Shown here: in pieces, positions 36,711 to 39,558 of the stretch
Layout: each line of letters begins with the position of its first letter
Position numbering within the stretch: the first letter of the stretch is position 1
Source: Actinomycetota bacterium
GTDB taxonomy: Bacteria > Actinomycetota > Acidimicrobiia > IMCC26256 > PALSA-555
NCBI GenBank assembly: GCA_003140175.1
Contig: PLJD01000025.1
Coordinates: forward strand, 1-64,000
Reading direction: 5' to 3'
DNA: 64,000 nt
Made by a program: the position numbers and the translations under genes
The notes under the pieces: model-generated
What the model saw: the letters and a program-made list of their open reading frames with translations, nothing else
What the model was told of the DNA's origin: nothing
Database searches by the model: none

Positions 36711-36820
36711 CACGCGACCCCCCGGGGCCCGGAGCCGCCCAACGCGGCGGCCCCTCCCCGCCCGGCCGGTTGCATCTGGTCCCCCGGCGCCACCATCACC
36801 ACACCCAAGGAGTCGACCTG

Positions 36821-37156
36821 TTGACCTCACCGGGACGCGCCGCGGCCGAGACCTATCTCGCCGCGGTCAACGCCAAGGATCGCACCGCACTCGCGGCCCG
36901 GTTCGCCGCGGACGCCGTCGCGCTCAATCCGTTCGGAGCGTTCCTCGGCCTCGACGCGGTCCTCGGCTTCTACGACGAGTACGTCGTTGCCCATGACGTC
37001 ACGGTGCGAGCGGCCGCCGTCATCGAAGCCGACGACACCTGCGTCGTCGAGCTCGACGGCTCGACCCCCTCGACGCCCGAGGTTCAGCGGATGGTCGACA
37101 TCTTCACCGTCGGCGAGCGGAGCCAGGTCACCCGCCTTTCCATCTACCGCCGTTAG
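36821..37156 (+). CDS. NTF2-like/SnoaL-fold protein with TTG start
   Basis: This is a 111-residue SnoaL-fold protein (AAAETYLAAVNAKDRTALAA, then AVALNPFGAFLGLDAVLGFY). No ATG or GTG fits the N-terminus; a TTG at 36821 follows AAGGAG with eight bases of spacing and gives the family length. The C-terminal strand VTRLSIYRR closes the sheet. It lies 110 bases after the acetyltransferase and converges on the cyclic-nucleotide-binding gene (11-bp gap). Specific function unknown. Confidence 0.75.
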   Translation: MTSPGRAAAETYLAAVNAKDRTALAARFAADAVALNPFGAFLGLDAVLGFYDEYVVAHDVTVRAAAVIEADDTCVVELDGSTPSTPEVQRMVDIFTVGERSQVTRLSIYRR

Positions 37157-37167
37157 CGGCCGGAGCG

Positions 37168-37614
37168 TCAATAGCCGAGCAACGGTCGACCCTCGTGACG
37201 GGCCAAGTCGCGCATGCGACGCCCGACGACGGCGAGCAGCTTGGGGGCGATCGCCGGCATGGCGGCCTCGAGCATGATGTTGAAGTCCTCGCGGTTGAGG
37301 ACGAGCAACGCCATCGGCGTCGTCGCGGTGACGGTCGCGAGACGTTCGCCACCGTCGAGGAGGGCCATCTCACCGAAGAACGAGCCCGACGTGAGCTCCC
37401 CGACCTGGTCACCGTCCACGGTGGGAGTCGCCGACCCAGACACGATGACGAAGAAGTCGTCTCCGGGCTCGCCCTCCCGCACAACGGCAGTGCCCGCTTC
37501 GATGGAGCGGGGAGTCACGAGCGACGCGATGTAGCCGAGCTCGGCGTCGCTGCATCCCGAGAAGAGCCACACCTTGCGCAGGAGCTCTTGGGGGTTCTCA
37601 CTGGGCTCGCTCAT
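37168..37614 (-). CDS. Cyclic-nucleotide-binding domain protein
   Basis: This 148-residue protein is essentially one cNMP-binding beta-roll: LFSGCSDAELGYIA at the N-terminus, VVREGEPGDDFFVIVSGSA, and the phosphate-binding cassette GSFFGEMALLDGGERLATV, where Glu and the Arg/Thr positions contact the cyclic nucleotide. No DNA-binding domain follows, so it is a sensor or regulatory subunit rather than a Crp-type factor. It could read signals from a cyclase such as the FHA-cyclase in this window. The start at ATG 37614 lies about 190 bases from the start of the TGA-containing redox gene, which is divergent. Confidence 0.9.
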   Translation of the reverse strand: MSEPSENPQELLRKVWLFSGCSDAELGYIASLVTPRSIEAGTAVVREGEPGDDFFVIVSGSATPTVDGDQVGELTSGSFFGEMALLDGGERLATVTATTPMALLVLNREDFNIMLEAAMPAIAPKLLAVVGRRMRDLARHEGRPLLGY

Positions 37615-37799
37615 CTCGGTCCCCTCTCGTCCGTGATGCTCGGACGCTACCGTCGCCGACGCGCGCCGGGGGCGCTGCTCGAGCACCGTCTGCTCGCGGC
37701 CGGTGCACGCCACTGTGTGAGACTGGGACCAGCATCGGTCGCGCCCACGAGCGACGCTCGAGCCTCACGACCGCTGACCATGGGAAAAGGGGATCGGCA

Positions 37800-38870
37800 A
37801 TGCTCCTCACCGACCTTGCGGTCGACCCGGCGGACTTCGAAGCGCGGACCGGCTGGGCACTCAAGCCTGAAGGGGCTTGCAAGGCGGAGGTCTGCGTACC
37901 GCTCCCCCCGGCGGCGCGTACCGCCACCGGACAGCTTGACGTCAGTGTCGTCGCGCAGCGGCTCGGGATGCCCATCGCGCGCGACGCCGGGCACGGGCTC
38001 TGGGCGCTGGGGCCCGAGACCTCGGTCAGCGGCCGGGTGTTGACCACGGCTCAGGCCCCCGACCTCGAGCTTCCCGCCGCGGATGGCACACCGTTTCGAC
38101 TCTCGAACCTGCGCGGCCAGAAGGTGATGCTCGTCGCCTGGGCTTCGTGGTGAGGCTGCCGCTTCGACCTGCCCGTGTGGCAGGAACTGCGGACCCGGTT
38201 CCACCCGCAGGGTCTTGAGGTCGTCACGGTCGCGCTCGATGTCGATCCCGACGCGGCACGCCCATTTATCGAGGCCGCGAAGCCTGAGCATCCGTCGCTC
38301 ATCGATCAGGCGCACGTCGTCGATGAGCTCTTCGGGATCGTCAACGTTCCCAACGGCGTGTGGATCGACGAGCAGGGCACGATCGTGCGACCCGCGGAGC
38401 CAGCCTTCCCCGGCGCCAACCCGGTCATCGACGCGCTCCGAGAAGTTGATGTCTCCAAGCTGCCGCCCGAAACCGCCGAGATGCTCGTCGAAGCCCGCAA
38501 GATCAAGGCCGATCCTGAGGGCTATCTCGACATGCTGGTGGACTGGGTGGAACACGGGACGGCGAGTCGGCACGCATTGACACCGGACGAGGTGATCCGG
38601 CGCTCGCAACCCCGCTCCACCAATGAGGCGCTTGCCGCGGCGCAGTTTGAGCTCGGCCAGCACCTCCACCGGAGCGGCGATCACGATGCTGCGATCCCAC
38701 ACTGGCGCGAAGCCCATCGTCTCTTTCCTGACAACTGGACTTACAAGCGACAAGCGTGGGAGTTCGAGGACCCGATGCGACAAGGCCGAACCGACGCCTA
38801 CGACAGTTCGTGGTTCGACGACATCAAGCGGCTGGGGGCCGAGAACTACTACCCGCCGATCGTGCCCTAG
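37800..38870 (+). CDS. Candidate selenoprotein: thioredoxin-fold (TlpA/redoxin-like), Sec at residue 118
   Basis: Two frame-compatible reading frames (37800-38153 and the following open stretch to 38870) join into one 356-residue protein if the TGA at 38151-38153 is decoded. Upstream: VMLVAWASW; downstream: GCRFDLPVWQELR. This is the redox-active site of a TlpA/redoxin thioredoxin fold, with TGA where a Cys normally stands, giving U-G-C. The downstream half continues the fold (LEVVTVALDVDPDAARPF, GIVNVPNGVWIDEQG) and adds a helical tail. Coding quality is even on both sides. A hairpin fitting the bacterial SECIS rules begins six bases after the TGA. The alternative is a single TGC-to-TGA mutation making a pseudogene. 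ATG 37800 follows AAAAGGGG. Confidence 0.72.
38159..38192 (+). promoter_or_regulatory. Candidate bacterial SECIS element
   Basis: Directly after the in-frame TGA (38151-38153), CCTGCC at 38168-38173 pairs perfectly with GGCAGG at 38179-38184 around the loop CGTGT. A lower stem CCGC (38159-38162) pairs with GCGG (38189-38192) across an internal loop. The apical loop starts 20 bases after the TGA and has G as its second base, as in known bacterial SECIS elements that bind SelB. GC-rich DNA forms hairpins easily, so this is support, not proof. Confidence 0.6.
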
Positions 38871-38882
38871 CCGTCCCGACGC

Positions 38883-39371
38883 TCACCACCAACCGCTGCT
38901 GAACCGTCGGGGAACGGCCAACGACTGCACCGCGTGAGGAGTGACGACGCCGGGCCGGCCCGAGGCGCTGCTCGTCAAGAACGCCGCGCTGGCCGCGGCG
39001 GCGAGGCAGACAACGATCACGACGGCCGCCGCGACCATGAACCACCGCCGAGCGGGTCGCCGCCGAGCCGCACCGTCGGGCGACGCCGCGTGCTCGGCTC
39101 CCTCCGAGTCCGGTTCGGCGACGCTCAGGTCGGCGGGGCGCGACTCGATGCGCAGGGGTGGAGCAACCGCGACCCGCAGGACTGGCATCCCCCAGCGAAT
39201 GGGGGGCGGGAGCTCGCCGAGCGCGGGCTGCCAGGCGATCGAGGGAGTCTCGACGGGTGACGCCACGACCCATGCGGTCCAGTGGTCTCCCGCCCACCAG
39301 CGCAGATGCGGCGGCCCGACGAACGGGTCGGTGTGCCACGACGCCGGCTGAGGGCTCGGTGCGTCGTGCAT
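38883..39371 (-). CDS. DUF2510-like single-pass membrane protein
   Basis: The 162-residue protein starts with SWHTDPFVGPPHLRWWAGDHWTAW, the W-x(2)-D-P ... R-W-W-x-G-x-W-T pattern of the DUF2510 domain. A central Arg/Pro-rich part precedes a membrane helix (about 112-137; FMVAAAVVIVVCLAAAASAAFL) and a short exterior tail. The role of DUF2510 proteins is unknown, and they are common in actinobacteria. It converges with the candidate selenoprotein gene with 12 bases between stops and diverges from the following amidohydrolase gene. Confidence 0.8.
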   Translation of the reverse strand: MHDAPSPQPASWHTDPFVGPPHLRWWAGDHWTAWVVASPVETPSIAWQPALGELPPPIRWGMPVLRVAVAPPLRIESRPADLSVAEPDSEGAEHAASPDGAARRRPARRWFMVAAAVVIVVCLAAAASAAFLTSSASGRPGVVTPHAVQSLAVPRRFSSGWW

Positions 39372-39558
39372 CCGTGCCTGCCTTGCTCGTCGTCACCACC
39401 ACAGCCGCCGAGCCCAGCGCTGTCAAGTGTGTACGCAGAACCGCGGCGAGGGTCCCGGTGACGGCCATCGCCGGGGGGCGCGCCCGCCCCCGGGCACCAC
39501 GGGGACCAGGGCAGGATATGGTCACGCGGCGCGGCGCGAACCAGAGGGGTGGTCCCCG

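What the first reader, a model, noticed from the sequence alone, without database searches (positions are those of the whole stretch)
38120..38200. Candidate selenoprotein: in-frame TGA at the redox-active position of a TlpA/redoxin-like protein, followed by a SECIS-like hairpin
Two frame-compatible open stretches (37800-38153 and on to 38870) read as one 356-residue thioredoxin-fold protein if TGA at 38151 is decoded. The flanking text VMLVAWASW and GCRFDLPVWQ places the TGA exactly where family members have Cys, giving U-G-C. The hairpin after it (6-bp upper stem CCTGCC/GGCAGG, loop CGTGT beginning 20 bases after the TGA with G at loop position 2, plus a 4-bp lower stem) meets the published bacterial SECIS rules. 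The protein also has a long N-terminal extension and a helical tail, so the Sec form may be a little-described family. A single TGC-to-TGA change making a pseudogene is the main alternative.
Basis: partly seen in the sequence, partly recalled or inferred. Interest (0 to 1): 0.85.

Follow-up and report, generated by a model that had tools for sequence, protein, structure and literature searches.

The report
Genuine selenoprotein of a known family
The in-frame "stop" codon in this gene is almost certainly read as selenocysteine, the rare 21st amino acid, making a thioredoxin-like redox protein of a family NCBI has already named (WAxxUGC), so the find is real but mostly already known.

Summary
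TGA 38151-38153 is codon 118 of a 356-residue frame (37800-38870). Read through, the protein matches NCBIfam NF041054 'WAxxUGC_long' over its whole length, 558 bits against a cut-off of 300. The genome has selA, selD and tRNA-Sec, plus a C-terminal selB piece cut by a contig end. Of 19 homologues fetched from other genomes, 18 have TGA at this codon and one has TGC. Across 45 genomes TGA goes with selA (36 of 38) and Cys without it (0 of 7). The hairpin alone proves nothing (fold z -0.11). Its conservation does: in 54 Sec genes the loop-closing pair between two synonymous third positions is complementary 54/54 (22 expected), as C-G, G-C or A-U, and Cys homologues lose it. Selection on protein is equal on both sides of the TGA. 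Best reading: a cytoplasmic ResA-fold selenoprotein oxidoreductase with a U118-G-C120 centre and an invariant N-terminal C27-x4-C32 pair. The substrate is unknown. It is a new member of a known family. Less described: a sister subfamily, also with Sec, below every NCBIfam cut-off, and the second Cys pair.

The parts
37800..38870 (+). Selenoprotein gene, NCBIfam WAxxUGC_long family: 356 codons plus TAG, read through TGA at codon 118
   Evidence: NF041054 558.3 bits over model 1-352/354; pN/pS equal on both sides of the TGA
38151..38153 (+). TGA codon 118, read as selenocysteine (U of W-A-S-W-U-G-C)
   Evidence: TGA in 18 of 19 homologues, TGC in one; TGA goes with selA
38157..38159 (+). Codon for invariant Cys120, partner of Sec118 in the UGC motif
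   Evidence: invariant column in alignment A1
38168..38184 (+). SECIS apical hairpin CCTGCC-CGTGT-GGCAGG
   Evidence: conserved and co-varying in 54 Sec genes
38174..38177 (+). Loop core N1-G-U-N4; C38174 and G38177 form the co-varying loop-closing pair
   Evidence: complementary in 54/54 Sec genes as C-G, G-C or A-U (types counted); 8 changes of type on the tree
37878..37895 (+). Codons of the invariant N-terminal pair Cys27-x4-Cys32
   Evidence: invariant columns; kept in both subfamilies wherever the N-terminus is in hand
38046..38399 (+). ResA/TlpA-like thioredoxin-fold domain (about residues 83-200)
   Evidence: Pfam AhpC-TSA 53.9 bits; Foldseek ResA 2f9s TMt 0.76, rmsd 1.8
38460..38790 (+). 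C-terminal helical part with a TPR-like stretch (residues about 221-330)
   Evidence: helices in the AlphaFold2 model; TPR_2 24.5 bits, below its cut-off 27

Best explanation
37800-38870 is one working gene for a selenoprotein. SelB carrying Sec-tRNA-Sec binds the hairpin 38168-38184, 20 nt after UGA 38151, and selenocysteine is inserted at residue 118 (inferred from comparison, not shown by protein data). The product is a cytoplasmic ResA/TlpA-fold oxidoreductase of the NCBIfam WAxxUGC_long family; no signal peptide or membrane segment is visible in the sequence. Its centre is U118-G-C120, one residue shorter than the usual CxxC. The likely chemistry: the Sec selenolate attacks a disulfide or peroxide, C120 resolves the bond, and the invariant C27-x4-C32 pair of the N-terminal domain passes or receives electrons. 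That last step and the substrate are inference.
For: Full-length match to NF041054, 558.3 bits, cut-off 300. Genome has selA, selD 405 bits, tRNA-Sec 66.1 bits with anticodon tca, and the C-terminal part of selB at the start of a contig. TGA at the same codon with an intact frame beyond it in 18 of 19 homologues from Actinomycetota, Chloroflexota and Pseudomonadota, Cys in one. Genomes with TGA forms have selA in 36 of 38 cases, Cys forms in 0 of 7 (Fisher p 8e-7). Tree: four Sec/Cys changes. SECIS: 365 pairs against 288.8 +- 6.2 under synonymous shuffling, N1:N4 54/54 against 22.3; Cys forms at the null level. pN/pS 0.27-0.40 after the TGA, 0.36-0.42 before it. ResA fold.
Against: selB is seen only in part: no hit passes the TIGR00475 cut-off, because a contig ends inside it. 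Two genomes with TGA forms show no selA (G017, 70% complete, no tRNA-Sec either; G075, which has a 77.9-bit tRNA-Sec). The window hairpin alone is not exceptional. Shuffle and Fisher counts ignore relatedness, though the tree needs 8 changes of the co-varying pair. No protein-level evidence. No conserved gene neighbours to point at a substrate.
Confidence: 0.95

Rival explanations
1. Pseudogene or sequencing error: a TGC-to-TGA change broke a Cys-type redoxin and the TGA is a real stop.
For: One base separates TGA from TGC, and a Cys form with TGC exists (L036). The hairpin alone is no better than shuffles.
Against: Same TGA in 18 of 19 separately assembled relatives and in 38 genomes of two kinship samples; protein-level selection after the TGA; TGA follows selA; co-varying synonymous hairpin only in TGA genes.
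Confidence: 0.02
2. TGA is read through by another route: near-cognate suppression or a reassignment of TGA to Trp or Cys.
For: None specific; an open frame after the TGA is all that such a route predicts.
Against: tRNA-Sec, selA and selD are present; the TGA aligns with a redox Cys; Cys forms sit in genomes without selA; the hairpin is under selection of its own.
Confidence: 0.01
3. Two separate proteins: a 117-residue N-terminal product and a re-initiated product from GTG 38175.
For: A 231-codon frame from GTG 38175 exists.
Against: It would cut the thioredoxin fold in two just after the strand that leads to the redox centre; homologues with Cys are one unbroken protein (L036, L058, L062, L090).
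Confidence: 0.02

Closest known systems
NCBIfam NF041054.1 WAxxUGC_long, 'ResA-like WAxxUGC motif-containing protein' (equivalog)
   Same: Full-length match 1-352/354, 558 bits, same U-G-C motif, same length.
   Different: Nothing that matters; this is a member.
'UGC-containing TlpA disulfide reductase family' / 'Prx-like (UGC-containing)' selenoproteins (PMC2398784, PMC9312934, PMC13188914)
   Same: Same domain type and same UGC motif; predicted in ocean metagenomes in 2008 with 46 Sec and 855 Cys forms.
   Different: The papers give no NF041054 number and their example sequences could not be compared here; identity with the long family is likely but not shown.
ResA / TlpA / DsbE thiol-disulfide oxidoreductases
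   Same: Same thioredoxin fold and active-site place.
   Different: UGC in place of CxxC; extra N-terminal domain with C27/C32; helical tail; no visible signal peptide or anchor.

Membership tests
NCBIfam NF041054 WAxxUGC_long | Score over curated cut-off 300 bits, full length | tested here: met
   558.3 bits, residues 1-354 of 356 on model 1-352/354
NCBIfam NF041054 WAxxUGC_long | WAxx-U-GC motif with TGA at U | tested here: met
   WASW-TGA-GC
Bacterial selenoproteins | selA, selD and tRNA-Sec in the genome | tested here: met
   selA, selD, tRNA-Sec tca
Bacterial selenoproteins | selB in the genome | tested here: inconclusive
   only a C-terminal piece at a contig edge, no hit over the TIGR00475 cut-off
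Bacterial selenoproteins | SECIS hairpin within published limits after the UGA | tested here: met
   6-bp stem, 5-nt loop with G at 2, spacing 20, MFE -9.3; limits from PMC13188914; conserved in relatives
Bacterial selenoproteins | Cys homologues at the Sec position | tested here: met
   L036, L057, L058, L061, L062, L090, L096
Bacterial selenoproteins | Sec found in the protein | not testable with these tools
   needs 75Se labelling or mass spectrometry
ResA / TlpA (classical) | Thioredoxin fold of ResA type | tested here: met
   2f9s TMt 0.76, rmsd 1.8
ResA / TlpA (classical) | CxxC active site | tested here: not met
   U-G-C, one residue shorter
ResA / TlpA (classical) | Exported or membrane-anchored | tested here: inconclusive
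   no hydrophobic N-terminal stretch in the sequence; no dedicated predictor run
ResA / TlpA (classical) | Role in cytochrome c or oxidase maturation | not tested
   no conserved gene neighbours found

The most novel reading that the evidence does not exclude
The WAxxUGC proteins are two-centre selenoenzymes. An N-terminal domain with an invariant C-x4-C pair exchanges electrons with the U-G-C centre, and a sister subfamily, also with Sec and found across the same order, is not recognised by any NCBIfam model above cut-off.
Probability: 0.4. Interest if true: 0.45.

Novelty: new member of a known kind. Interest (0 to 1): 0.3.

Why it matters
It confirms a selenoprotein in a little-studied group of Actinomycetota (named relatives are Acidimicrobiia) that ordinary gene callers would cut into two pieces. 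It also gives a clean case of Sec/Cys exchange tracking presence of the Sec machinery, and of a SECIS supported by synonymous co-variation. The function of the family remains open: no substrate is known, and the invariant N-terminal Cys pair is a direct handle for testing it.

Tried and rejected
A search of the papers for 'WAxxUGC' and for 'NF041054' found nothing. Rfam found no RNA family over 36800-39400. Gene neighbourhood: no family shared by more than three loci apart from the gene itself and its shadow frames, so no operon evidence. No relative in viral contigs. Plasmids hold no full-length copy; a Rhodococcus plasmid has only the C-terminal part, under a 'hypothetical protein'. No promoter or terminator was found by consensus. 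The highest TIGR00475 hit in the genome, on contig C69, is EF-Tu by its sequence, not SelB. Formate dehydrogenase, the usual selenoprotein: no hit over cut-off and no TGA.

Full report
WHAT IS THERE. The frame starts at ATG 37800, meets TGA at 38151-38153 (codon 118) and ends at TAG 38868-38870. Read with TGA as a residue it gives 356 amino acids, with ...VMLVAWASW-U-GCRFDLPVWQELR... at the centre. Taken alone it is weak evidence: it folds no better than shuffles (z -0.11), and about 12% of random synonymous recodings keep the same pairs.

FAMILY. The read-through protein matches NCBIfam NF041054.1 'WAxxUGC_long' (ResA-like WAxxUGC motif-containing protein, equivalog) from end to end, 558.3 bits against a cut-off of 300. 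Pfam gives AhpC-TSA (53.9 bits) and a weak TPR stretch. So the family is known and its name already states the Sec motif. Papers held here do not use that name, but 'UGC-containing' Prx-like or TlpA-like selenoproteins have been predicted since 2008 (PMC2398784; PMC9312934; PMC13188914).

MACHINERY. The genome (4.25 Mb, 128 contigs, 94.5% complete) has selA (466 bits), selD (405 bits) and a tRNA-Sec with anticodon tca (66.1 bits). selB is cut by a contig end: the start of contig C70 carries what reads as its middle and C-terminal winged-helix part. No selB hit passes the curated cut-off, probably for that reason. The best-scoring hit, on C69, is EF-Tu by its sequence.

RELATIVES. Nineteen homologues came from a scan of one genome for each of 84,980 species. 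Eighteen have TGA at this codon and an open frame beyond it as far as the contig reaches; one, Patulibacter minatonensis, has TGC. In 41 relatives and 396 genomes of the phylum, 38 genomes carry a TGA form of this family or its sister, and 36 of them have selA. The two exceptions are G017 (70% complete, no tRNA-Sec found) and G075 (tRNA-Sec 77.9 bits but no selA found). Seven genomes carry a Cys form (G018, G024, G030, G034, G205, G412 and Patulibacter) and none has selA. One of them, G030, has a tRNA-Sec-like hit just over the cut-off (49.8 bits). Fisher p = 8e-7, not corrected for relatedness. On the tree the Sec/Cys label changes four times, and Cys rows lie among Sec rows.

SECIS BY COMPARISON. 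In 54 different Sec genes the stretch keeps the pattern CUGCC-N1-G-(U/G)-N4-U-GGCAG, with few exceptions in the outer pairs, at one fixed distance from the UGA. N1 and N4 are third positions of the Pro and the Val/Gly codons. They are complementary in all 54, against a mean of 22.3 (highest 33 in 2000 trials) when codons are redrawn by usage. All seven pairs together score 365 against 288.8 +- 6.2. Among the 56 rows before duplicates were merged the types are C-G 40, G-C 13 and A-U 3, with 8 changes of type on the tree. Cys forms score 30 against 31.4, and N1:N4 pairs in 1 of 6. One further Sec gene (L093) has changed amino acids, V-P-V-W-D, yet keeps the stem through changes on both sides: GUCCC-GGUCU-GGGAC. 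The lower stem of the window is not conserved.

SELECTION. Against six relatives, pN/pS after the TGA is 0.27-0.40 and before it 0.36-0.42, with no other stop in frame. The downstream part is kept as protein.

STRUCTURE AND FUNCTION. The AlphaFold2 model is good (mean pLDDT 88.2, pTM 0.87). The middle domain is a ResA-type thioredoxin fold (2f9s, TMt 0.76, rmsd 1.8). Invariant redox residues are C27, C32, U118 (Sec or Cys) and C120; the C-x4-C pair is also present in the sister subfamily. No signal peptide or membrane segment is visible in the sequence. The best-supported role is a cytoplasmic selenium-based thiol-disulfide or peroxide oxidoreductase, with U118 as attacking group and C120 as resolving thiol; the use of C27/C32 as a second centre is inference. 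No gene is conserved next to it, so the substrate is open.

SISTER SUBFAMILY. The same genome has a second Sec gene, C85:19946-20836, at 235 bits, below the 300-bit cut-off of NF041054 and above no other cut-off. Such genes form a separate, fully supported branch, with TGA in genomes that have selA and TGC or TGT in those without. This is the less described part of the find.

VERDICT. A genuine selenoprotein (0.95), a new member of a known family.

Noticed in passing
L098:1501-2391 (own genome contig C85:19946-20836): Second Sec gene of a shorter sister subfamily, below the NF041054 cut-off and unnamed by NCBIfam; common in the same order, Cys in genomes without selA.
   Followed up: partly
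L036:5001-6050 (Patulibacter minatonensis): Cys form that keeps the complete SECIS-like stem although no selA or tRNA-Sec was found in that genome: possibly a recent Sec-to-Cys change.
   Followed up: partly
L093 (genome G075): Sec gene with changed residues (VPVWD) whose hairpin is kept by changes on both sides of the stem; genome has tRNA-Sec but no selA was found.
   Followed up: partly
L054 (genome G040): Variant motif U-H-C in place of U-G-C in a long-family member with the usual hairpin.
   Followed up: no
L105:2417-2761 (Rhodococcus qingshengii plasmid pLP4): C-terminal part of the family alone (60% identity over residues 237-323), annotated as hypothetical protein; looks like a truncated relic or a separate small protein.
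   Followed up: partly
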